Source: Citrus sinensis
Lineage: Eukaryota > Streptophyta > Magnoliopsida > Sapindales > Rutaceae
Assembly: GCF_022201045.2 (NCBI RefSeq)
Contig: NC_068557.1
Location: 620,001-684,000 of the forward strand
Direction of reading: 5' to 3'
DNA length: 64,000 nucleotides
A program made the position numbers and the translations under genes. Shown here in pieces: positions 1-50,382 of this stretch; positions within the stretch are counted from its first letter, which is position 1; every line of letters begins with the position of its first letter. Under the pieces are notes generated by a model. That model worked only from the letters and a program-made list of their open reading frames with translations, had not been told where the DNA came from and made no database searches.

Positions 1-31
1 ACCAGTGCACCCCGATGCACCAACTTGCATC

Positions 32-386
32 ATCATTCACAGTTACGCTGGTGACCACAATTGCTCATCAACTTTGGTTCGTTGATTGAATTAGGCTCTT
101 ATCTTTAGACATATCATAATCTTATAATAATTTTATGTTATTTTTAAAAATTTTAAAAATTTTAAATTATTAAATGCTTTAATAAAACTAATGGCAAAAA
201 AGAATGTGGATTGGGGCTTTAGTCAGAATTTGAGATAATTTAGAAGAATTTTTTTGGGTGAAATCTAATCAGTGTAATAATTACTAAAAAAAAATGAAAA
301 ACAAAACTGCAAAAGATAGGAGCATAATTCAATCAATGAACCGAAGTTGATGAGCAATTGTGGTCACCAACGTAACTGTGAATGAT
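32..386. repeat. Fold-back element with 75-bp inverted arms
   Basis: Positions 32-106 and 312-386 are reverse complements over 75 bp with about five mismatches, separated by about 205 bp of AT-rich DNA. The arms include the stretch TGGTGACCACAATTGCTCAT. A transcript could fold into a long hairpin. This fits a fold-back MITE or a recent inverted duplication. I found no clear target-site duplication outside the arms and no reading frame inside. Confidence 0.75.
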
Positions 387-2371
387 AAGGAGACAAGGGT
401 AGCGTTGTAATTTTTGAAGCTAAAGCGGAGGGGGTGTGTGTGTGTGTATAAATAAACTACGAGTGCTTCTCTCACCTCAAGAAAAAAAAAATATATAATA
501 TATATATGAGTAGTGCTAGAGAGAGATAAGCACGAGAGAAAGACGAGAGAATTTTATTCTCTCTCTCTACCACTTTCTTTATTATTTCTCTCGTACTTTT
601 CCATACCAAGCATTTTCCTCTATATATATATAGGAGGTTGCTATGTTATAGAATCTGTAACATACACACCCAAGGGAAAGTGCACATGTGTCCTGAGGAG
701 AGAGAGAAACCAACAAATGCATCCAATTAGGAGCTGGATAAGTCACCTCAAGAAAATACTGACAAATTAATCGTGGCACGTACCTTTGACCTTTGTAGCA
801 AAAGCCGGGATTTTTTTTTTGTTTTTTTCAGTGACTTTATTATTTAAAATTGACCAATATAAAATGTTTATTGTTTACAGTTTAACTTCCTCAATCGATT
901 ATATTCTCTCTCATCACAGTTCAGTTCTTCTTGATAGTGGTTCGTTTTACTTTAATTGTCACCAATCAAAATAGATGGAAATGTATTGAATTTAGTTATG
1001 TTTGGTCAATTTAATTGTTAGTGAGACTTTATCATCATGGTCATGATAAATTAGGCATATGGAAGAAAGAAGAAACTCTAAGGTTTATTGAAAGAGAGCC
1101 ACATTAAATAGAGAAAGAAAAACAAATTAAAAAAACTATATAACTAAATTCGATAACTAATTTTGTGTATGAGATGGCTCGGAATTGGAATTGGACAAGC
1201 CTGTCTATCACCATGATCGACCATAAAAGTAGCTAGCCTTTTTTTCCCCCCTTTTGAGAAAGGAAAGTAACACTTCCATTACCTTGACCTTGTGAATACA
1301 TCCATTATGGCAGTTGGGATTTCATTATTTCATAGAGCTGAATCTTTGAACTCTATGGCTAACTTAGGCAAGGAATGAACATGTAATTAAATTGCATGTT
1401 CTAGGAGTGTGCATAATTATATCGAAGTTAATGTCTAATGTTGGTGCTTTACTACCCATTTTTTTTTAATTTTGTTTCCATATTAGTATTGTTATCTAAA
1501 GTTTTAAAATTCTATTATATTTTAAATTTTCCCGAGCTTCTTCTGATTTTTCGTGGTTCATGGCTCTGAAAGCTTTATATTTGGGCTATTTGCTCACTTG
1601 GTTTAATTTGGATATCTGGGTTAAGTTAATATATAATTTCAACTAGTTGTATGCGTATAGCATTTCCATTTGCATTTCAATGGTGAAAGCTACGGTAGAG
1701 ATGCATTTGTTGTTCATGAAAACTACGAAAATATAAAGTTATTATAAATGGTGCTCCCCATAATGCACTCTCTAATTCATTGTTTCATGAAAAGTAAAGT
1801 GCATGTGTGTGCGTGCATATTACATATATCAATTGCTGGAAATTCTTCAGTTATGATACGTTTTTGAATCCATATAATCAATTGCTCTTGACTTATTAAT
1901 CATAGGTTTCGTTCATTTATGTCGACTTTTTGCATTACTAAGTAACAGCGGCGCAGTGCTATCTTTAATATTATTTAAAGATCTTGTCTATATAACCATA
2001 TATAACCCTAATCAAGTTATATAGGGAAAGAGTGAAAAATCTTGTCTTTAATATTATTTAACATGTGGGTCCCACTAATGGACAAGTAAAAGAAGAAAGT
2101 AATTTCAATTTCGCCGTGTTTTTGCGCATACGTAAACCACTCTTCTTTTGTTTCTCGAAGTATTGTAAGCCACTCTAGCACAACATAATTATTGCCCATT
2201 ACTTGTCCAAACTCCAAAAGGACAATCCATTGAACGTTCAGACACATCTTCCAGAGTGATAAACCATATTAACCAAGTAAAAGAAATTAAACGAAAGTTC
2301 TTGCAGCTAACAATGCATGCATGCATACTTTATGTATCGCATGGTATATTATTGAGTGGGCATCCTCATGA
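387..2371. other. Intergenic, AT-rich, no gene seen
   Basis: No reading frame here looks coding. The stretch holds a short GT run near 431-447, CT/GA-rich tracts near 520-590, and a near-repeat of the string CTTTAATATTATTTAA at about 1963 and 2045. An 11-bp inverted pair (TGGACAAGTAA / TTACTTGTCCA) lies near 2079 and 2203. A minus-strand frame at 2017-2247 is discussed among the rejected items. Confidence 0.6.
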
Positions 2372-2801
2372 TCAGTCCATCAGACGATTAACAGCAGTCA
2401 GGACACTTATGTTCCCTCTTTCCACTTCCTCAACGGTTTGTTGGACGGTATCTCGAATACCCATAGCTTGCCTAATTTGGAATGTCCCTTTTTGTAACTT
2501 GAGCATTTCTGAGTCTTTCGCTCAGCGGAGAGTTAATGGCTTCTTCATCAACTGGTGCTTCATCTCGGCCAAAAGATGTCAGGCTCGCAGCTGCCAATAA
2601 CTGCTCTTTAACATCATCAACAATAATTTCATTCCGACACAATTGCAAGAGCAACGAACGCACAGAGTCATGGAGTCCTAGTTCTTCTTTGATCGAACGA
2701 ACAGTCTCTTCTTTTGTCACAACCGTCTCACGAACATCGACAAGGATAGATTGCACAATACGCCGTCTTCTCGCTTGTTCTTCAAGAGATACAGGAGCCA
2801 T
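2372..2801 (-). pseudogene. Unrecognised small helical protein gene, frame-broken
   Basis: I do not recognise the family. From the ATG at 2801 the first frame gives 109 residues and ends at 2472; it is rich in Glu, Arg and Leu with no signal peptide. A second, overlapping frame continues to a stop at 2372-2374 and looks like the true C-terminus. The two halves carry matching helical modules. In the first, a GLHDSV start is followed by an R..I.V spacing pattern; in the second, GIRDTV is followed by the same pattern. This suggests an internally duplicated protein of about 140 residues now split by a single-base frame change near 2490-2520. No plausible intron fits the gap, because the candidate would be only about 30 bp. 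It could also be a sequencing error in a working gene. The low AT content compared with its surroundings supports coding origin. Confidence 0.5.
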
Positions 2802-3182
2802 AGCTTCTAATCTATATATAAATTAGTTTACCCAATCATCAGTACCTAAAAAGGCATGTAATTAATTTAAAAGAATAGAAAATCATTTATCAGAAAGAGA
2901 AACTACGAAGTTACTTTGTTGTTAATTTAAACGAGAAGACATGTTATCAATTTAAAAGAAAAGAAAATCATTTATCAGAAAGAGAAACTACAAAGTTGAC
3001 AACAGAAACTAGTTCACCACCAACAACAAAAGAGATAATTATTTGTGTCAGTATAGAAAAAGAGAAAAGAAACAATTTGAATAATATGATGATCATCAAT
3101 ACACATTGGATAAATATGGTCAACATCAAGACCTCCTAAAATTTTGAAAAAGATTTGATGATCATCGTGGATCATGGTCACC
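2802..3182. other. Left flank of the MYB array, related to its right flank
   Basis: This AT-rich, gene-less stretch resembles 5840-6130. Both contain a block with ACTAGTTCA, an ACAACAAA block, AAGAGATA and a run of AAAGAGAAA, followed by GATGATCATC motifs. The array therefore sits between two copies of the same flanking sequence, as expected if the whole block arose from one duplicated ancestral locus. Inside, about 35 bp around AATCATTTATCAGAAAGAG is repeated at 2880 and 2967. Confidence 0.55.
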
Positions 3183-3568
3183 CTAATTAATTAATGAACT
3201 AACTGGGTTCAGGATTAGGGTGTGGCAAAGTGGGTTAAGGAAGCATGAAGAAGGCGGCCTAATGGTTCCAATGAAAAAAAAATCTTGAACGAGACTTGAG
3301 ATCGTCAAGAACCACTGAAACTTATGATTAATTAAGAAACTAACTAGGTTCAGGATGAGGATATGGGGGAAGTGGGCAGGATTAGGATATGGCAAAGTGG
3401 GTTATGGAGGCATGAAGAAGAAGGCCTAATGGTTCCAATGAAAAAAACCGTGAATGAGAATTGAAGATCATCAAGAACTACTGAAACTTGTGCAATGAAT
3501 TTTATAGATTTTTTAGGTTCATGGGGTAATAAACATGAATTAAGCTTATGAAGAAAGAAGCCGAAAGA

Positions 3569-3933
3569 GCTTGTGGTTATGACAAGGCAAGTGTGAAGAA
3601 GGGGCATGGTCACCTGAAGAAGACTCAAAGCTTAAGGAGTACATATAGATATATGGCACTGGTGGCAACTATTTGAGGCCAGATATGAAACCTTGGGAAT
3701 TTCCTGATGAGGAAGATAGGCTGATCTGCAGGCTCTTTGCTATCAGTGGAAGTAGATGGTCAGTAATTGCTGCCCATCTACATGGAAGGACCGACAATGA
3801 AACCAATAACTACTATAAGAACACAAAGCTCAAGAGAAAGCATGAAGAAGGCGGCCTAATGGTTCCAATGAAAAAAAATCTTGAACGAGACTTGAGGATC
3901 GTCCAAGAACCACTGAAACTTATGATTAATTAA
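3569..3933 (+). pseudogene. R2R3-MYB (RAX-type) fragment, unit 1
   Basis: Read across frames, the segment spells the start of a plant R2R3-MYB (DKASVKKG, then WSPEEDSKLKEYI), then YGTGGN joined directly to YLRPDMKPWEF, then a nearly complete third-helix-bearing R3 repeat (SRWSVIAAHL, GRTDNETNNYYKNTKLKRK). The wording matches the RAX/MYB36-MYB68-MYB84 group. About 23 residues of R2, including its recognition helix, are missing at the GGN-YLR junction. A frame break lies in the KKG-AWS region, and a stop replaces the residue after KEYI. The longest open piece, 3673-3933, encodes 86 residues holding R3 only. Normal R3 has NYWN where this copy reads NYYKN, which inserts one residue and loses the key tryptophan. 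A functional transcription factor is unlikely, although a short R3-only peptide cannot be excluded. Confidence 0.8.
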
Positions 3934-4165
3934 GAAACTAACTGGGTTCAGGATGAGGATATGGGGGAAGTGGGCAGGATTAGGATATGGCAAAGTGGGT
4001 TATGGAGGCATGAAGAAGAAGGCCTAATGGTTCCAATGAAAAAAACCATGAATGAGAATTGAAGATCATCAAGAATTACTGAAACTTGTGCAATGAATTT
4101 ATAGATTTTTAGGTTCATGAGGTAATAAACATGAATTAAGCTTATGAAAGAAAGAAGCTGAAATA

Positions 4166-4509
4166 GCTTGTGGTTATGACAAGGCAAGTGTGAAGAAGGG
4201 CATGGTCACCTGAAGAAGACTCAAAGCTTAAGGAGTACATATAGATATATGGCACTGGTGGCAACTATTGAGGCCAGATATGAAACCTTGGGGATTTCCT
4301 GATGAGAAGATAGGCTGATGTGCAGGCTCTTTGCTATCAGTGGAAGCAGATGGTCAGTAATTGCTGCCCATCTACCTGGAAGGACCGACAATGAAACCAA
4401 TAACTACTATAAGAACACAAAGCTCAAGAGAAAGCATGAAGAAGGCGGCCTAATGGTTCCAATGAAAAAAAATCTTGAACGAGACTTGAGGATCGTCAAG
4501 AACCACTGA
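4166..4509 (+). pseudogene. R2R3-MYB (RAX-type) fragment, unit 2
   Basis: Second array copy of the same MYB remnant. The N-terminal part reads A-CGYDKASVKKG and shifts frame before WSPEED. The same stop after KEYI and the same R2 deletion at GGN-YLR are present, so these lesions predate the amplification. The open R3 stretch starts only at 4318 and gives 63 residues ending in RIVKNH. It has LPGRTDN, the normal form, where unit 1 has LHGRTDN. An additional base is missing around the DEE-DR segment compared with unit 1. Confidence 0.78.
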
Positions 4510-4758
4510 AACTTAGATTAATTAAGAAACTAACTGGGTTCAGGATGAGGATATAGGGGAAGTGGGCAGGATTAGGATATGGCAAAGTGGGTTATGGAGG
4601 CATGAAGAAGAAGGCCTAATGGTTCCAATGAAAAAAACCGTGAATGAGAATTGAAGATCATCAAGAACTACTGAAACTTGTGCAATGAATTTTATAGATT
4701 TTTAGGTTCATGGGGTAATAAACATGAATTAAGCTTATGGAAGAAAGAAGCCGAAAGA

Positions 4759-5105
4759 GCTTGTGGTTATGACAAGGCAAGTGTGAAGAAGGGCATGGTC
4801 ACCTGAAGAAGACTCAAAGCTTAAGGAGTACATATAGATATATGGCACTGGTGGCAACTATTTGAGGCCATATATGAAACCTTGGGGATTTCCTGATGAG
4901 GAAGATAGACTGATCCTGCAGGCTCTTTGCTATCAGTGAAAGCAGATGGTCAGTAATTGCTGCCCATCTACCAGGAAGGACTGACAATGAAACCAATAAC
5001 TACTATAAGAACACAAAGCTTAGAGAAAGCATGAAGAAGGCGGCCTAATGGTTCCAATGAAAAAAAAATCTTGAACGAGACTTGAGGATCGTCAAGAACC
5101 ACTGA
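4759..5105 (+). pseudogene. R2R3-MYB (RAX-type) fragment, unit 3
   Basis: Third copy. It shares the shortened R2, the stop after KEYI and the KKG frame break. An extra base in the sequence coding for RLI-CRL (near 4912-4920) shifts R3 out of frame, and further small losses occur around TKL-RK. No useful open frame remains on the sense strand. It otherwise matches units 2 and 4 closely. Confidence 0.78.
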
Positions 5106-5355
5106 AACTTATGATTAATTAAGAAACTAACTAGGTTCAGGATGAGGATATGGGGGAAGTGGGCAGGATTAGGATATGGGAAAGTGGTTATGGAGGCATG
5201 AAGAAGAAGGCCTAATGGATTCCAATGAAAAAAACCTTGAATGAGAATTGAAGATCATCAAGAACTACTGAAACTTGTGCAATGAATTTTATAGATTTTT
5301 AGGTTCATGGGGTAATAAACATGAATTAAGCTTATGGAAGAAAGAAGTCGAAAGA

Positions 5356-5702
5356 GCTTGTGGTTATGACAAGGAAAGTGTGAAGAAGGGCATGGTCACC
5401 TGAAGAAGACTCAAAGCTTAAGGAGTACATATAGATATATGGCACTGGTGGCAACTATTTGAGGCTAGATATGAAACCTTGGGGATTTCCTGATGAGGAA
5501 GATAGGCTGATCTGCAGGCTCTTTGCTATCAGTGGAAGCAGATGGTCAGTAATTGGTGCCCATCTACCTGGAAGGACCGACAATGAAACCAATAAACTAC
5601 TATAGGAACACAAAGCTCAAGAGAAAGCATGAAGAAGGCGGCCTAAAGGTTCCAATGAAAAAAAATCTTGAACGAGACTTGAGGATCGTCAAGAACCACT
5701 GA
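5356..5702 (+). pseudogene. R2R3-MYB (RAX-type) fragment, unit 4
   Basis: Fourth copy, immediately before the right edge of the array. It has the same ancestral lesions (KKG frame break, stop after KEYI, R2 deletion). It reads IGAHL in place of IAAHL. An extra base near NNK-LL breaks R3, and GLKVPMKK replaces GLMVPMKK in the tail. It is followed by one more diverged 85-bp tail sub-repeat ending near 5835 in a poly-A-like run. Confidence 0.78.
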
Positions 5703-5835
5703 AACTTATGATTAATTAAGAACTAACTGGGTTCAGGATGAGGATATGGGGGAAGTGGGTTCAGGATTAGGGAAATGGCAAAGTGGGTTATCGAGGCATG
5801 AAGAAGAAGGCCTAATGGTTCCAATAAAACAAAAA

Positions 5836-7630
5836 AAAAAAAAAGCTAGTTCATCATTACTAACAAAAGCTACTAGTTCATCTTCAACAACAAAGAGATA
5901 TATATCAGTAACAGAAAAAGAGAAACGAGCACTGAAGGTGGATAAAGTATAAAAGACAAAAAATAAATAAAAAGAAGAAAAGAAGGGCAAGATATGATGA
6001 TCATCATCAGCAATTATTCATAATCAACATGGAAGAAGCAGATAATAAAACATCAAAAATGAAAATCAATTAATTGAAAGACAAGAAAAGAAATGCAAAA
6101 TAAATCATCATCAAGATCTATTGAACTTGGGAAGAATTTGATCATCATGGATATGATTAATTAGGACTTATGGAAGAAAGAAGAAAGTAGGAAGGTTTAG
6201 GGAGTAGGAATGGGCAAAGGGGGCTTAAAAGGAGGCATGAAGAAGAAAGCCTAATGGTGCCAATGAAAAAAACCTTGAATGACACTTTGTTCTTGAAACT
6301 TGTGACATGAATTGCATAGATCTTCAGGTTCATGAGGAAATAAACATGAATTATGCTTAAGCTGATGGAAGAAAGAAGCCAAATTCAGAAGAGATCCACA
6401 AAAAGAAGCGAAAATTTTTTTCAAAGTGGCAAATGAATTATGCTTAAGCTGATTTATTATGTATGTATATAGGCCATGGACCTGCAAGTCAATTTTAACT
6501 TTTTAATTTTTTTTCTTTTGGATATGTTGACTTTATAAACTAAAATCTTAAACTTTTGTTCGCTAGCATTCGGTAGTTAAATTCTCTAAATGGTAGTTGT
6601 CTCCTCTTTGTTTCTCACAAGATGCATGTTTTGTTATATTTATTAATTATCTAACTTTATACTTTAATTGAGAATAATAGGAATTAAATTTGGGGAATTT
6701 GTACACTTGTTTGCAATGGTACTAAGGCTTTGGTGGAGGCTTGTAATTAAGAGAAGAAAAAACTAAAGTAAATCTTAATTGTAAAATATAAAATCCAGAT
6801 TTTATTTGATAGTTATAAATCACAAAACAACTTTGATAGTTTTAGGTTTCTGTGCCTGACCAAACACTTCTATCATAGTTTTAGGTTTTGCTTTTAGTAT
6901 GGATTACGTCAATAATACTCTTGTGATAGAAGCACCTTTATATATTTATTTAATCTATTTCCTAAGACAAATAATTAACCAAAAAATAAAAAAAAAGGTT
7001 TAGGAATAAAAATATAGAGTCACTATTACATTAAATTTATTTATTAAAAAAATTATACAAGTAAAAAATGACTTTTCACTATAAGTCATCAAATTACTTG
7101 ACAAAAATATTGATATTTATAATTAAAAAATTATTCTAATATCCTAAATCAATTATACAAAGTAGTTTGAATATCTAAATAAAAACTTAGGTTCAAAATG
7201 AGTTAAATTCACTCCATTAATAATTAAGAGGACCTATTTACTTCAAATTCTTTGTGAATATCATAATAAAAGAGGGGGGGTTAAAATAAGAAGTGGAAAA
7301 GTAATAATGGTGTATTGATGGGTTTTTTTTTTTTTCAATCTTTTCTTGGAAAAATAAAATTTTGAGTGAGAAATATTTATGCAAGGGTGTTATTTTGATG
7401 TTAAACAGATATTAGCCAATTTATTTTCTCAAATAAATATTATTTTTTTCAAAAAATTATAACATAGTAATTAAGCAAGGAGAATAAAGACTTCATTCAT
7501 GCAAATTGTACGGGTAAAATTAAAGAAAACAAAAAGAGGGATGCCTGTCCCCCGGAGCCCTAGAAGCAGCTACTGCTCAATAAAAGTGGAATACACCATG
7601 CCCTTGATGTTGGAGAGGATTATGATGAAT
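5836..7630. other. Right flank of the MYB array with a degenerate unit; no gene
   Basis: Positions 5840-6130 echo the left flank of the array. Positions about 6145-6480 hold an eroded unit: the tail sub-repeat (GCATGAAGAAGAAAGCCTAATGG), the TTCAGGTTCATGAGG block and the AAGAAAGAAGCC block are recognisable, but the MYB part is absent. From about 6500 the sequence is AT-rich and featureless, with homopolymer runs near 7323 and 7441. A low-confidence open frame starts at 7499. Confidence 0.6.
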
Positions 7631-8218
7631 CAAAAGTTGCAACTTTTCAACAAAAATACAAGAAGTTGCAAAAATCTGTCCTTTTAGGTGGTGCTGATGC
7701 CATTATATCGCATGTAAGCACACTACTCTATGGAGCAATTAATTTTCTTCACATACAAACTTACCGATAAATTAAGCATCATGCACATTTTGTATATATG
7801 GTAAAATTTTATTAAATAGTAGTACACGGAAGTGGTGGTGTTGTCATGATGTCATCTTCTAAGATTTTGTCCAAAGTTAGAATTTTATTAATTGCGCTGA
7901 TGAACCAAACCGACAATCAACATCATCTAAATTATAAACAAATGCTCACGCAAAGTTGGTAACTCAATGTATTAAAGCTGACTGGGTTTGACTTATTGGC
8001 TTGCCAAACCATAGCTTAAGGGGAAGATTGAGGCAGCTTCATACAAGGTTAATAATCACAGGCTTCACAGCCAAAGCAATGTTGTAAGGTAATCCTAGGT
8101 CCATTTATCATCTAAATTAACACCATTTATGTTCAAAAGGGAAGAGGTAATCATTCAAAAGCCATGATTATGAGTTATAAGATTTTTGCAACTTCTTGTA
8201 TTTTTGTTGAAAAGTTCA
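7631..8218. repeat. Inverted copies of a 36-bp coding-like segment
   Basis: About 36 bp at 7641-7676 (CTTTTCAACAAAAATACAAG and on through the AAGTTGCAAAAATCT end) recurs as a near-perfect reverse complement at about 8181-8216. In one frame both read FQQKYKKLQKS. On the minus strand the right copy is preceded by LQIEKLQKEAQVQEIF, a heptad-like pattern suggesting a coiled coil. The left copy is preceded by DVGEDYDESKVAT in its frame. These look like remnants of a gene exon duplicated in opposite orientation, but I cannot name the family. The spacer of about 500 bp has no gene. Confidence 0.5.
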
Positions 8219-8992
8219 GAAAATTTCCTGCACTTGAGCTTCTTTTTGCAACTTTTCAATCTGCAACATGAAAATCAACCTCAGCTACAAAACACTAATT
8301 CAGTTGCAAAAGGACAAACTGGAATCGCAGATTATGTTGGACATGTATGGCCAGGAAGGTCATGATCCCAGGTATGTCGATCTAAGTATGCTTTTCTACA
8401 AAAATACAAGAAGAAGAAGAGAAAAGCAATTTGTCAAATCATGTGTTTATATAAAATCTTTTTTAGTCCTTTCATTAATATTATTTTTTTTAATCTATAA
8501 TGCATTTACCTGCCACCCCCGTACGTAAAACCCTTTACAGCTTTTTCAATTCACATTCTTTTAACTAATTAATCTCGTATCTCTATCAATTGTTAATTGT
8601 GGGGGATAATAAAGCACTTCTATGATTGTATAGCAATAAAATTAAAGTTTGAGTTGACAAAAAACAAATTTAGAGTATAATTTGACAGATTCTTGCAGTC
8701 TTTCTTGATAAGGCTGCTTTGACTCACGCCCAACGCAACGCAAGAATAGCTTTGTTATTATCAAAATTTCCCTCTTCTTATTCTTGATTGAAAAGTCAGG
8801 AAGTATGGACGGCACGTACGACAAACAAATTAAAGCATGTATACGCCTGGATCACGCATTACGGGTTAAATATATGTGATTCATGTCGATTAATTGAGAG
8901 AACAAGTTCCATCTATTTGCTAGCTACGATGTGTGCTTCAACTTTTCACAACTTGTTAATCAATACATATAATTATCTTGCAAAAATTAACC
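8219..8992. other. Intergenic; start of the protease duplication
   Basis: An open frame at 8268-8528 is not recognisable. From about 8875 the sequence begins to match the promoter of the intact protease gene (compare 8875-8992 with 10785-10941: the GAGAGAACAA block, TTTGCTTCA-like block and the final CCATGG). The TATA segment present in the intact gene at 10842-10851 is missing here. Confidence 0.55.
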
Positions 8993-9846
8993 ATGGTTTT
9001 AATATTTGAGAAAAGTAGCAATTTTAGATCAATAATATTATTCCCATGGTTTATTATTATCATCCTGGTGAGTTGTGCATCACTTGAACAATCCGCTGTT
9101 AAGAAACACGAAAATGGATGGTTCAACACGGACGCAGTTATAAAGACGAGCTAGAGAAGGAAACGAGGCTTAAGATATTCAAGGTGAACCTTGAATACAT
9201 TGAGAAAACCCAATAAGGAGGGGAATTGGACGTACAAGTTAGGCACCAATCAAGTTTTCGGGCTTAACTAACGATGTGTACGTGACTTCATACACCGGAT
9301 ACAAGATGCCAAGCCCGAGCCACCCATCCACAACATCATCACCTTCAAGTACCAAAACCTGTCCATTGACTAATGTTTCGACAAGCCTGGACTAGCGGGC
9401 AAAGGAGCTGTCACTTTATCAAGGACCAAGGCTTTTGCGGTAAAATTGTAATTATATTAAGTGAATCGTATACCATATCGGGAATTTCTCCGGTGACGTT
9501 ACTGTAAACATGTGAAAAAGACCATCTGTCTTCATTTTATAAAAGGCGGACATCCACACCAGATAATCACTGGTCATTTTGTTTAGAGAGCATTATCAAG
9601 TGCGGGCTTATGCATTTACAACACTGTAAAACACGCGGCCGCGGACATATGAGAATAATTTATTAGGCTTAATTGCCAGTATTAGATTTTGTTGGGTTTG
9701 GAACAACTGAAGATGGAACCAATTACTGGTTAATTAAGAATTCATAGGGCAACATTTGGGGTGAGGCTGGCTACATGAAGATTCTCAGAGATGACAGTCT
9801 CCGTGACACTGGGCGCTCAATCTTTCTATCCACTTGCATGAATACG
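8993..9846 (+). pseudogene. Papain-like cysteine protease pseudogene (SAG12-like)
   Basis: This is a broken duplicate of the gene at 10942-12445. It starts at the same context (ATGGTTTTAATATT) and follows the propeptide (KHEN/GW, HGRSYKDELEKE, RLKIFKVNLEYIEK) with several frame breaks. It reaches NQGFCG and an intron-like donor at 9440, then loses most of the catalytic second exon. The end is recognisable again at about 9690-9846 (VGFGTTEDGTNYW, an early stop where the SWG tryptophan should be, then GEAGYMKI). The active-site Cys-Trp-Ala-Phe segment and the His segment are not found. Positions 9450-9660 hold unrelated sequence with an unusual CG-rich patch near 9633-9645. Together with the lost TATA segment, this copy is clearly dead. 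Confidence 0.88.
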
Positions 9847-10840
9847 TACGTGCATTATGTATTTGCCACAAAAAGCTGATATATATTTTGTGTTTTTTTA
9901 TTTTTCGTTAAGTTAAATAATGTTTTTAATCTTTATTTAAACTATTAATGTTTGTAATTGAATGTATGTATTTGGCCTGGTATCAATTAATGTTAAGTCT
10001 CGCGATTAAATGTATAAGTTTGCTCTTTGCTGCAATTATTTGTTTACATTTCAACCAATAAATTATACAAAGAACAAAATCAAGAGTTGAAAGCACTGAA
10101 ATTTGTATGAATTATGGAATTCTGCTTTCAGATTCACTTCTCTGATTGTGTCTTCAATTTTAAAAATGAAATTTCACGTTTACAGTTTACTTGCTTCGAG
10201 ACGATAAACTAAGCAAGTAGAGCAAGAATATTTATACATATCAGAGGATAATATTTCATTTTCAAGAATCGAGAAAAACAATAATTTTCAATGAGAAATA
10301 GAATTGCTATATAAACGAAAAACAGAAGCACACACAGACGTGTAATAATTCAGAGATGCATTTTCCACATTTACAAGTCAAAATACTTATGATTTTTATC
10401 GTATTTGAGATTATACCCGATTCTAGTTGTATGTTTTATGACATTATAGCACGTCTTGATGTTGGTAATTAATTAAGGATTCTTCATGCGACTCATTAAT
10501 ATTATAGGTATCAAAATTCATCGCAGATTTTGCAAGATTTCCTCCGTGCAAACAAATGTGTGCATGTATTATCGAATTATAAATCTTTTACCACAGGGCA
10601 TGACTTCACTCATAACTCTTATGTAATTTAATTATTTAGCTCTAGAATAAAGCAGTACATTTCTGTTGCACGTGCATTTATAATAGTGTAAGGTTAAATT
10701 TTAATTACATATTATTATAAAAAAAAAAACTCAGCACAACCAAATCCGAAAATTATTGCCCGCGCTTACACATACACAGGGGATTAAATGTGATCCACGT
10801 TATCTGAGAGAACAAATCAGCCAGATCTTCTGCTGCTACT
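9847..10840. other. Intergenic between protease copies; no gene seen
   Basis: AT-rich, with no reading frame that looks coding. From about 10780 it becomes the proximal promoter of the protease gene. Nothing else is supported. Confidence 0.6.
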
Positions 10841-10841
10841 A

Positions 10842-10851
10842 TTTATATATA
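10842..10851 (+). promoter_or_regulatory. TATA box of the cysteine protease gene
   Basis: TTTATATATAG lies about 95 bp before the ATG at 10942, giving room for a leader of about 60-70 nt. The paralogous pseudogene upstream lacks this block. Confidence 0.6.
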
Positions 10852-10941
10852 GACAGGGAGCTGCCATGTTTGCTTCAGTTATTCACAATTTTGTTTATAA
10901 ATTAGCTATATAGCCAACTCCTTCGACTTGCTAAATAAACC

Positions 10942-12445
10942 ATGGTTTTAATATTCAAGAAGAGCGGTTTTATGATGATTATCATCGTTGTGGTGATCAC
11001 CATTTGTGCATCACATGTTCAAGTGGCGGTGTCCCGATCAATGAATGAAGCAGCATCCATCTCCATTGCTGAGAAACACGAAAAATGGATGGCTGAGCAT
11101 GGACGCAGTTACAAGGACGAGCTAGAAAAGGACATGCGCTTTAAGATATTCAAGCAAAACCTTGAATACATTGACAAAGTCAATAATAATAATAATAGTA
11201 ATGAAGGGATCAATCGGACGTACCAGTTAGGTACCAATCAATTTTCAGACTTAACCAATGCGGAGTTTCGTGCTTCATATGCCGGAAACAGCATGGCAAT
11301 AACTAGCCAGCACTCATCCTTCAAGTACCAAAACCTGACCCAAGTTCCAACTAGCATGGACTGGAGGGAGAAAGGAGCTGTTACTTCTATTAAGAACCAA
11401 GGCGGATGTGGTAATCTATTATTATTGATTAACTAATAATGTGAATCAAATCAATGTGATTTTATCTGTGTGTTTATATAGATGTTTCAATCCAGGATTC
11501 TGGATTTGTAAAATTACACACACACATACATAAATACTAATTAAATTTTATCTATGGTAATTATACATCGTCACATGTGCTTGTTGTCCTAGTGGTTTTT
11601 AAGTAATTTTCTTTATGTGGATACTCTGATTTGAATCTTAGGGATGTAGGGGCTAAAACAATTGATTTGTTAAATTACATTTAACATGCCAACATGACAT
11701 ACATAAAATAGATGTGATTGCAGCGGTCCACCCAGTGATTTAAAAAATATCAATTTTCCATCCATCGTAAAATTAGACTTCAAGTTGCAAAGGTAAACTT
11801 CAGTTTATCGTTATTTTTATCAGCATTTAATTTTTCACTGAATATCACTGATCTAGGACATATATATATGCAGCAGCTTGTTGGGCATTTTCAGCAGTGG
11901 CGGCGGTGGAAGGGATCACTCAGATAAGTAGTGGTAATCTGATTCGACTTTCGGAGCAACAATTACTAGACTGCTCTTCAAATGGTAACTCGGGTTGTGT
12001 CGCAGGCAAGAGTGATATTGCTTTTAAATATATCATAAAAAACCAGGGTATTGCCACGGAAGCTGATTATCCATACCATCAAGTCCAAGGATCCTGTGGC
12101 CGTGAGCATGCAGCTGCCGCTAAAATCAGTAGTTATGAAGTTTTACCCTCGGGTGATGAGCAGGCTTTACTTAAGGCTGTGAGCATGCAGCCAGTATCCA
12201 TTAATATTGAAGGCACCGGACAAGACTTCAAGAATTACAAAGGAGGTATTTTTAATGGAGTATGTGGGACTCAGTTGGATCATGCTGTCACTATTATTGG
12301 GTTTGGAACAACTGAAGATGGAACCAAATACTGGTTAATTAAGAATTCATGGGGGGACACTTGGGGTGAGGCTGGCTACATGAGGATTCAAAGAGATGAA
12401 GGTCTCTGCGGCATTGGCACTCAGGCTGCCTATCCAATTACATGA
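10942..12445 (+). CDS. SAG12-like papain-family cysteine protease
   Basis: Two exons, 10942-11410 and 11874-12445, join into 346 residues. The intron runs from GT at 11411 to AG at 11873. The acceptor choice keeps the C-x-x-C-W spacing. Order: hydrophobic signal peptide (about residues 9-30), I29 propeptide with an ERFNIN-type helix (MRFKIFKQNLEYID) and a TNQFSDLTNAEF motif, then the C1A catalytic domain from about residue 135 (VPTSMDWREKGAV). Expected catalytic residues are present: Gln153, Cys159 in CWAFSAV, His293 in LDHAV, Asn314 in KNSWG. The loop before the catalytic Cys reads QGGCAACW rather than the usual QGSCGSCW, a mild departure. The length equals typical SAG12 proteins. It likely acts as an endopeptidase in the vacuole or secretory route during senescence or nutrient recycling. 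The neighbouring pseudogene shows a local tandem duplication. Confidence 0.92.
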
Positions 12446-45158: not shown

Positions 45159-45680
45159 TTAAATTGATGAAATGCTAGACCTTTGAGAAACTTTGCTCTT
45201 ACATTGTGGGATTTCTTGAAACTGCTCAGCAGGTAAATCCTCGGACAGAGCACCAACAAAGAACCTTAACACATCAGAATTTTTGACTGTCTCAATCCCA
45301 GTGACAGGCAACCAAAGGAACAATTTTTTAGCTTGAATGCCAGACACATCATGCACAGCACCATAACTAAGTTTCCCTTTTATATGCTTGTCATACCAAA
45401 CAAGCTGCTGAAAGTGAACATAGCAAGTTCTTGTCATCTCAATAGAGAATGAGCCAGTGGATTTATCAAGAGTGTAGGACTTGATGTCGCTTGGAATCAG
45501 GCCCTTTGGGAGGCCATAGAGAGGAAGAAGGTCGTGGACGTCTATGATTGACTGGAGAGGATGAGATGTACGGCTGTGATTAAAGGGTTTCTGGGTGATG
45601 GTGAGGGAGAATGTGAGGTCGGTTTGCGATAAGAGGGTGAGAAAGAGAAGGCACAGGGAGATTGAGTGAGGAGAAGCCAT
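45159..45680 (-). CDS. DUF538 secreted protein 1
   Basis: I start translation at the ATG at 45680 (MASPHSISLCLLFLTLLS) because it is followed at once by a signal peptide, whereas the upstream ATG at 45770 adds 30 residues before it. The mature protein of about 150 residues contains the DUF538 fold: LLPLYGLPKGLIPSDIKSY, FSIEMTRTCYVHF, VWYDKHIKGKLSYG, GIQAKKLFLWLPV and FFVGALSEDLPAEQF. DUF538 proteins are plant-specific, with weak structural likeness to bactericidal/permeability-increasing lipid-binding folds, and are tied to stress responses. The biochemical role is open. The C-terminus (QCKSKVSQRSSISSI) is short. A GT within CAATGTAAGAG could serve as a donor giving a different tail, so the last 13 residues are less certain. 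A second DUF538 gene lies 4 kb upstream on the same strand. Confidence 0.88.
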   Translation of the reverse strand: MASPHSISLCLLFLTLLSQTDLTFSLTITQKPFNHSRTSHPLQSIIDVHDLLPLYGLPKGLIPSDIKSYTLDKSTGSFSIEMTRTCYVHFQQLVWYDKHIKGKLSYGAVHDVSGIQAKKLFLWLPVTGIETVKNSDVLRFFVGALSEDLPAEQFQEIPQCKSKVSQRSSISSI

Positions 45681-46100
45681 TGTCGAGAGGTTGGCTGGAC
45701 TCTGGAGAAAGGAAGAAGAAAGGTCAGGTGGTAATAAAATGGGGAATGAAAGCGTAAAATTGGAAGACAAAATTTTGTTGAGTTGACTTTGAGTTGATTA
45801 TTTTAGAAATGTTGTTCGTAAGTCGTATCTTCTTGTTGTGTTGGGCCATTTTTTAAGGATTGGAGATGGTAATATGGGGGGATGATGGAGGGTAAAATTG
45901 GAACGAGAAATCAATGGTTGGTTGGAGTACTGGGGCTATAATTTTTTTTAAAAAATTATTTTTTTATCCAAATTGCAACCACACAACAATATTATGTTAA
46001 TTCTTAATCGGATCAAGCAGTGGGGGATATATAGATTCAGATTAGGGGACTTGGTTCAAGGGTTAGAATCTTTTAATTGTTCATTCGAAGACATTAGAAG

Positions 46101-48461: not shown

Positions 48462-50382
48462 CTACTCTGTGATTAGCATCTGCACTTCATTGGTGGGGGT
48501 TGGCAACTACAAATAGAAAGATTCTGAAAGTGAGATGATTATGAAACAATAAAATTTTTCGCTAAAGCATATAGATGGATCAAGTTCAGAGACAGATAAT
48601 CAGACAAACTGTAAACATGAAACAACCCAAGGAAAGAAGTTCCAAAGAAAAACTTTAGAAACAAGCACACAGATGCCGCAATTAAATCTCTGCAAATGAC
48701 TGTTTTTGCAACTGTTCAGTTGAAATTTGATTCTAATGTGGTAATATCAGCATGAATGCCAGCATGAACAAGACTTCGAAGTTCAAACATTCATCTAGAA
48801 CAGTTCAACAATAAAGAACCAACTTCAGACTAACAAAGAAAGAGAAGGTCACCTACTTTCCATACCTTTACTGGTTACGCAGCATAATCAATTTCTCCAA
48901 ATTCAATAATGAAAAAGAAGCTAATAAGGATATGATAAATACACTAGTAAACAGTAAAAGAAAGATGATGATATAAGTTCAAGACTGGTCACAAACACAT
49001 AATTTCCCCAAATATATGTAAGAAACTGCAAGTAAGACCGCTCAACATAATGCTTTATGAGCACTAGAACACTTCTTCAAATGATTTATTATAAATCTAT
49101 CTTTAAGCTGCGGCTCAATACTTCAAATAGTGCCTTCAAAGGTAAGCACCTTAAATCTCTCAAGGTAGAGTAGCAACTTCAATCAGGCACTTGTCTCAGT
49201 ACTAGGCAACATAAAACTAAAACTGCATTCTATCCATAATAACACATTTCTCTATTTCTAAACTATTCACAGAAACCATGACAAAACCTTTAATCCCTGA
49301 GCACACTCAAATAAATAAATTATATAGGATAAACACAAACTAATTAATCATTTTTATTGGTACTATGAGCTCAAATGCTAAATAATGCAAAAAGAACATA
49401 TGTAATGTTTACAAGGCCTAACTTAACTTTTAATTCTCCACAAATATAACAGAAGCAAAAACCCTTTCCACACTTATCCATTTATTTTATATAACAGAAA
49501 AGCATATTGTTACGTTCATCAAAAGAACTATAACCTCAACAAGTCACAATAATCAAATGTCATAAGCATATACAAACGCTCAGAGAATCGATTCGCAAAA
49601 GGTTTGATTTAACAACAGTAGAAAACCAATAAATAATATCTCAATTTCGCAGCTGCTGTAGGATATAGCATAATCACCAGTTCTTAAAATACAAGAAGAT
49701 GCAAACACATGCACGATCCACTACAAACCCTAACAAAATCACAAGAAATCTTTTACTCCAATAACCATAAATTTCAAAAACTCAGATGTAAATTCTCCAC
49801 CAATCACTAAACCCACGTGAATAACGTGATAAAAAATCAAAACTTTAAATGAACATTTCATCAGTTGTCACAAAGAAAGAAACCCTAAAACACCATTACC
49901 TGAAGAACGCGTGTCCAGGACCCACAACCAGACTCAGAAAGCCCATTATCACGGCAGGAATGAACGGTCTCGAACTGACCAACATCAAGCTTCTTGTTAA
50001 TGATGCCCACTTGAAAATAAATCGAATCAGACGGAGGCAAATCAACTCTGATCTCATCAACATCGAACCAAAACAAGAACCTCTTAACTTGAATGCCCTT
50101 CAAGTTCGAAATGGACCCGATACTGATCTTGCCAGTGACCGTCTTCTCATAATAGACCAAGTAATCGAACTCGACGTAGCATTCGGATGACAATTCGACG
50201 GTGAAAAGGCCGTCGTCTTGTAGGGTGTAGCTGACGACGTTGCTGGGTAAGAGGCCCTGTGGGAGGCCGAACTTGGGGAGGATTTCGTACACTGTTGGTG
50301 GTGAAGGATCAGAGGAGAGCGACAGGGTTGGTCTTAGCAGAAAGAGTGAGAGAAGAAAAAGGATGAGGATATTTGCAGACAT
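48462..50382 (-). CDS. DUF538 secreted protein 2, two exons
   Basis: Exon 1 runs 50382-49900 and encodes a signal peptide (MSANILILFLLSLFLL) and the DUF538 domain: ILPKFGLPQGLLPSNVVSY, FTVELSSECYVEF, VYYEKTVTGKISIG, GIQVKRFLFWF and FQVGIINKKLDVGQFETVHS. It ends in SWTRVLQ at a CAG-GTAATG donor. Reading on would add only VMVF and a stop. A 45-nt exon at 48506-48462, after a TTTGTAG acceptor, continues in frame as LPTPTNEVQMLITE and a stop, giving 175 residues. A Val-Gln-Met-Leu-x-Thr-Glu ending fits what I recall of one DUF538 clade, which favours this model over the unspliced 165-residue frame. The intron is about 1.4 kb. Function as for DUF538 gene 1: secreted or endomembrane, role unknown. 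The two DUF538 genes differ greatly, so their duplication is old. Confidence 0.82.

What the first reader, a model, noticed from the sequence alone, without database searches (positions are those of the whole stretch)
3183..5835. A tandem array built from a dead MYB gene
Four full ~595-bp units, each with the same crippled R2R3-MYB segment, stand head to tail with near-constant period (597, 593, 597). Plant MYB genes often form clusters of separate genes, but a minisatellite-like array of a sub-gene fragment is unusual. The lesions shared by all units show that amplification happened after the gene had died, so selection on MYB function did not drive it. High similarity to a RAX-type DNA-binding domain raises the chance that transcripts give small RNAs against living MYB genes.
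Basis: partly seen in the sequence, partly recalled or inferred. Interest (0 to 1): 0.7.

Follow-up and report, generated by a model that had tools for sequence, protein, structure and literature searches.

The report
Tandem array of spliced MYB relic
In a plant genome, a broken, intron-free scrap of a MYB regulator gene, apparently copied from messenger RNA into a small local repeat, was multiplied four times head to tail; it looks like a tidy fossil of known processes and probably does nothing.

Summary
The array is real: four full units (592-598 bp, spacing 596/593/597), 96-98% alike, with partial units at both ends. Some 46% of each unit (274-278 bp) is a dead R2R3-MYB DNA-binding segment; the rest is a non-coding repeat ("A"), 11 local copies. 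The nearest living gene overall is a RAX-type MYB on contig C8. Each MYB copy lies between direct A repeats; 42 of 43 variable columns are private to one unit and none splits the units two against two: insertion into an older repeat, then burst-like amplification, probably by unequal exchange (inferred). Small-RNA silencing of the C8 gene is conceivable (41 nt exact identity) but untested, and no strong inverted repeat was found. The exon-3 part diverges in a coding-like way that exons 1-2 do not; unexplained. New member of a known kind.

The parts
3183..5835 (+). whole tandem array as given: leading partial A repeat, four full units, truncated trailing A1
3244..3402 (+). leading A2 repeat without MYB before it
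3403..4000 (+). unit 1 (598 bp): A1, MYB piece, A2
4001..4592 (+). unit 2 (592 bp)
4593..5188 (+). unit 3 (596 bp)
5189..5785 (+). unit 4 (597 bp)
3563..3839 (+). MYB-derived piece 1 (277 bp; ends approximate)
4160..4433 (+). MYB-derived piece 2 (274 bp; ends approximate)
4753..5028 (+). MYB-derived piece 3 (276 bp; ends approximate)
5350..5627 (+). MYB-derived piece 4 (278 bp; ends approximate)
5786..5835 (+). truncated trailing A1, ending in an A-rich run
6201..6383 (+). older MYB-less A1-like copy, 75-77% identical to the units
3138..3219 (+). diverged A-type stretch left of the array, 76% identical to 5662-5743

Best explanation
A fragment of a spliced RAX-type MYB mRNA (about codon 3 to codon 116) was reverse-transcribed and inserted, without a recognisable poly(A) tail or clear target-site duplication, between copies of an older non-coding local repeat (A). 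The copy lost 23 codons between two CAACT repeats, during reverse transcription or afterwards, and acquired a TAG stop and a frameshift. Unequal exchange between the A2-A1 direct repeats that flank the MYB piece then multiplied the block to four copies in a short time; the units have since drifted apart independently. It makes no MYB protein and most likely has no function. Shown: array, shared lesions, exact exon 2/3 join, absence of intron 12-mers, flanking direct repeats, near star-like divergence. Inferred: reverse transcription, the order insertion then amplification, unequal exchange, lack of function.
For: Array and spacing. Exon 2 joined to exon 3 exactly at the C8 splice junction in 4 of 4 units; three RAX-type paralogs (C9, C7:4731616, C1:3705506) show an intron at the same place. 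0 of 78 intron-1 and 0 of 244 intron-2 12-mers of C8 occur in 3183-5835, against 73 of 317 exon 12-mers, deleted part included. 69-nt deletion bounded by CAACT on both sides in C8. The deletion join, 20 bases with up to 2 mismatches, has 3 hits in the genome, all in this array; the pattern read backwards has 2, so chance hits do occur at this setting (unit 2 has an indel in the join and is missed). A core: 11 copies at 3244-6236, each MYB piece between A1 and A2; genome-wide pattern 7 hits, all here, reversed control 0. Of 43 variable columns among 603, 42 are private to one unit, 1 has three states, none is two against two.
Against: Intron 1 falls inside the deletion, so only one intron shows precise removal. 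No poly(A) tail or clean target-site duplication marks a classical retrocopy (junctions read by eye). The exon-3 part does not fit a single simple source: 10 of 12 differences from C8 are at third codon positions, against 3 of 13 in exons 1-2 (Fisher P 0.005, post hoc). The high share of small indels between units (8-10 events against 11-16 substitutions) may partly be assembly error. No related genome could be searched, so the order of events is inferred.
Confidence: 0.8

Rival explanations
1. Variant of the above on the donor: the MYB piece is a chimeric cDNA, exons 1-2 from the C8 RAX mRNA and exon 3 from a second, now lost or unrecognised MYB mRNA, joined by template switching in the conserved R3 region (or a lost paralog partly converted by C8).
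For: Divergence of unit 1 from C8 rises 3/91, 10/90, 14/85 over the three exon pieces (P 0.014). Exon-3 differences are mostly third-position, the others not (P 0.005). The exon-1 and exon-2 trees put the units beside C8 (80% and 86%); the exon-3 tree puts them with the other side (60%).
Against: The joined tree puts the units with C8 at 97%. C8 is still the best exon-3 DNA match among 49 loci compared (68/85; next 63/84) and the only living hit of the exon-3 DNA search, though the whole-unit search listed exon-3 hits on C7 and C6 and not on C8, and by protein C8 barely leads C3:45808994 (37.4 against 37.1 bits). The exon-3 tree is weak, on about 85 columns, and the tests were chosen after seeing the data.
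Confidence: 0.2
2. The array is a source of small RNAs that silence the C8 RAX gene.
For: 41 nt exact identity to C8 exon 1 in 4 of 4 units, and 20 nt more nearby; the longest run without variation among units (70 columns) covers it.
Against: The run is not significant (permutation P 0.17). No inverted repeat of 40 nt or more in the array; 11 weak short pairs only. Fold of one unit z -0.87; no Rfam match at gathering score in 1-12000. No expression or small-RNA data here.
Confidence: 0.06
3. Assembly artefact: a repeat count or unit differences created by the assembler.
For: 17 of 43 variable columns carry a gap, many in short homopolymers; no reads available.
Against: 26 variable columns are substitutions, nearly all private to one unit, and the flanks hit only this locus in the genome search.
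Confidence: 0.06
4. The MYB piece came from genomic DNA by two separate deletions, one of which happened to remove intron 2 exactly.
For: The intron-1 region is gone through a deletion with microhomology, so deletions do occur here.
Against: A second deletion would have to match both splice sites to the base; no intron 12-mer remains.
Confidence: 0.03

Closest known systems
Processed pseudogenes (retro-pseudogenes) of plants (PMC7935947, abstract and one section read)
   Same: Intron-free, disabled copy of a multi-exon gene at a new chromosomal place
   Different: Cut short at both ends inside the coding region, no poly(A) tail or clear target-site duplication, and tandemly amplified
DUX4 in the D4Z4 tandem repeat (PMC3004920, abstract and one section read)
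   Same: A spliced-mRNA copy of a transcription-factor gene carried in the units of a tandem array
   Different: Here the units are about 0.6 kb, four in number, and the frame is dead; DUX4 is a retrogene that is expressed (abstract of PMC3836709 in a search listing; its open frame is recalled)
Minisatellite/satellite DNA derived from genes or mobile elements (recalled; listings)
   Same: Head-to-tail units of near-constant length with private mutations
   Different: One short local array, found at one place in this genome, with a larger unit than a classical minisatellite

Membership tests
R2R3-MYB, RAX type (name recalled) | Myb_DNA-binding profile match | tested here: met
   open pieces of 4 of 4 units, 26.6-37 bits, cut-off 24.4
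R2R3-MYB, RAX type (name recalled) | intact R2 and R3 repeats in one open frame | tested here: not met
   23-codon deletion, TAG stop and frameshift in every unit
Processed pseudogene | introns removed exactly at exon junctions | tested here: met
   exon 2/3 join exact in 4 of 4 units; the intron-1 junction lies in the deletion and is uninformative
Processed pseudogene | disabled reading frame | tested here: met
Processed pseudogene | poly(A) tail and target-site duplication (typical of full-length LINE-type copies, not required of truncated ones; recalled) | tested here: inconclusive
   read by eye at the junctions: the copy ends inside exon 3; a 4-5 base GAAAG lies at both ends but can be explained as MYB sequence
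Tandem repeat array | adjacent head-to-tail copies of one unit | tested here: met
Small-RNA silencing locus | small RNAs mapping to the array and acting on the C8 mRNA | not testable with these tools
   no RNA data; 41-nt identity only

The most novel reading that the evidence does not exclude
The insert is a two-parent chimeric MYB cDNA made by template switching between two MYB messenger RNAs, captured in a local repeat whose direct copies then turned it into an array that still offers 41 nt of perfect match for small-RNA control of the living RAX gene.
Probability: 0.03. Interest if true: 0.6.

Novelty: new member of a known kind. Interest (0 to 1): 0.27.

Why it matters
It is a small, well-preserved record of three steps in a row: copying of an mRNA, insertion into a local repeat, and tandem amplification. 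Processed pseudogenes are a minority among plant pseudogenes in the five species of PMC7935947 (section read). The shared lesions show that tandem growth of coding-derived DNA here needed no selection on the coding function. It also warns annotators against counting these four pieces as MYB genes.

Tried and rejected
A dispersed transposable element carrying the MYB piece: not supported, since the unit, both flanks and an A-core pattern hit only this place apart from MYB exons (the DNA search skips very common words, so this is not proof). A cryptic splice as cause of the 69-nt deletion: rejected by eye, no placement of the break within CAACT gives GT-AG ends (sequence). A selected, invariant exon-1 segment: longest invariant run 70 columns, permutation P 0.17. 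Another living donor for exon 3: none better than C8 among 49 loci (40 fetched from the 116 matches, 5 of which are the array itself, plus 9 loci held before); the other matches were not compared base by base. In the translation check of these 49, 45 gave the expected R3 motif. Rfam: no match at gathering score in 1-12000. A bacterial promoter/terminator scan does not apply to a plant and is not used. Papers: 10 searches (three with terms for MYB and pseudogene or retrocopy: 30, 40, 43) listed no title or abstract start reporting a tandem array of a MYB processed pseudogene. Read: abstracts, outlines and one section each of PMC7935947 and PMC3004920; eight passages of PMC4223058, the sweet orange MYB survey, none on such an array; all others only as listings.

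Full report
Observation. The repeat finder gives four copies with spacing 596, 593 and 597 for the main block, and BLAST of the region against the window gives 96% identity over 2.0 kb when shifted by one unit. TRF misses it because its longest period is 500. The four full units (3403-4000, 4001-4592, 4593-5188, 5189-5785) differ pairwise by 11-16 substitutions and 8-10 small indel events. Of 43 variable columns among the first 603 of 606, 42 are private to one unit, one has three states, and none splits the units two against two, so no two units show a closer shared history.

What the unit is made of. 274-278 bp of each 592-598 bp unit (about 46%) is MYB-derived, with ends set by eye; the rest is a non-coding repeat. 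Its 39-base core, with up to 9 mismatches, occurs 11 times between 3244 and 6236 in the first 9 kb: 5 times as type A2 and 5 times as type A1, alternating, plus once in a MYB-less A1-like copy; that copy, 6201-6383, is only 75-77% identical to the units. The order is A2-A1-MYB four times, then A2-A1 (truncated). The left flank 3138-3219 is itself a diverged A-type stretch, 76% identical to 5662-5743. So the MYB piece most likely went into an older local repeat. A 31-base core pattern with up to 3 mismatches has 7 hits in the 300-Mb genome, all at this locus, and 0 for the reversed control.

The MYB piece. Open pieces of all four units match PF00249 above its cut-off. The closest living gene is on contig C8, with exons at C8:26843889-26844024, 26844114-26844243 and from 26844499. 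It is the best match for exon pieces 1, 2 and 3 among the loci aligned, and the joined tree of the three pieces with six RAX-type genes puts the units with C8 at 97%. For exon 3 the lead is thin: the whole-unit query listed exon-3 hits on C7 and C6 and not on C8, the exon-3 query listed C8 alone, and by protein C8 leads by 0.3 bits. The genome has nine contigs of 24.8-52.3 Mb, 299.0 of 299.7 Mb; this resembles Citrus by recall, and no call names it.

mRNA origin. In 4 of 4 units exon 2 passes into exon 3 exactly at the C8 splice junction. Three RAX-type paralogs (C9:32555801, C7:4731616, C1:3705506) show an intron at this place on both sides. None of the 12-mers of C8 intron 1 (0 of 78) or intron 2 (0 of 244) occurs in 3183-5835, against 73 of 317 exon 12-mers. 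The intron-1 junction itself is lost in a deletion of 69 nt of mRNA (24 nt of exon 1 and 45 of exon 2; 23 codons, in frame), bounded by CAACT on both sides in C8. The deletion join has 3 genome hits, all in the array, at up to 2 mismatches; the reversed pattern has 2 hits, so the setting is permissive. The copy starts near codon 3 and ends at about codon 116, inside exon 3; no poly(A) tail or clear target-site duplication is seen. I infer capture of a cDNA fragment and not a textbook LINE-type retrocopy.

Death before amplification. All four units carry the deletion, TAG in place of GAG, and a frameshift at the same site (one nucleotide shorter than C8 in unit 1, two in the others). In exons 1-2 the 13 differences of the unit majority from C8 fall 4/6/3 on codon positions 1/2/3, as expected of dead DNA (split by exon by hand from its list).

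What does not fit. In the exon-3 part the 12 differences fall 1/1/10, a coding-like pattern (Fisher P 0.005, post hoc), and divergence of unit 1 rises from 3/91 to 10/90 to 14/85 over the exon pieces (P 0.014). The exon-3 tree places the units away from C8 with 60% support, while the exon-1 and exon-2 trees keep them beside C8 with 80% and 86%. C8 nevertheless remains the best exon-3 match of 49 loci compared. A chimeric cDNA, a lost paralog plus gene conversion, or chance remain open.

Mechanism. Direct A2-A1 repeats on both sides of the MYB piece give a ready substrate for unequal exchange, and the near star-like divergence suits a short burst of amplification. This is inference; no related plant genome was available ('no relatives here').

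Function. No MYB protein can come from it. The small-RNA idea has one necessary condition met: 41 nt of exact identity to C8 exon 1 in 4 of 4 units. Against it: no inverted repeat of 40 nt or more near the array, 11 weak pairs of 18-27 nt, an ordinary RNA fold of one unit (z -0.87), and a non-significant invariant run (P 0.17). I hold it at about 6%.

Known kinds. Processed pseudogenes are a minority among plant pseudogenes in five species (PMC7935947). DUX4, embedded in D4Z4, is a retrotransposed transcript in a tandem array (PMC3004920). This locus is a small, dead plant case of the same kind. My ten literature searches listed no report of this array or of a MYB counterpart, but the library lacks most subscription papers.

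Noticed in passing
3756-3839, 4350-4433, 4946-5028, 5542-5626: Exon-3-derived parts differ from the C8 gene mainly at third codon positions (10 of 12), unlike exons 1-2 (3 of 13); possible second source or lost paralog.
   Followed up: partly
2472-2801 (-): 109-aa ORF just left of the array on the other strand, no Pfam match at E 0.001.
   Followed up: no
9102-9841, 10942-12445, L025:1-336: Papain-type cysteine protease gene at 10942-12445 (for its first exon); related pieces at 9102-9443 and 9689-9841, and upstream at L025:1-336, suggest a local protease cluster with fragments.
   Followed up: no
32-106 and 312-386: Inverted repeat, arms 75 nt, 93% complementary, 205 nt apart; MITE-like in form.
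   Followed up: no
45159-45770 (-) and 49885-50382 (-): Two neighbouring DUF538 genes.
   Followed up: no
L005 and L006 (C3:47615295-47618432 and C3:47873085-47876222): Two MYB matches about 258 kb apart on C3 with identical scores and stop counts: a recent duplication or an assembly duplicate.
   Followed up: no
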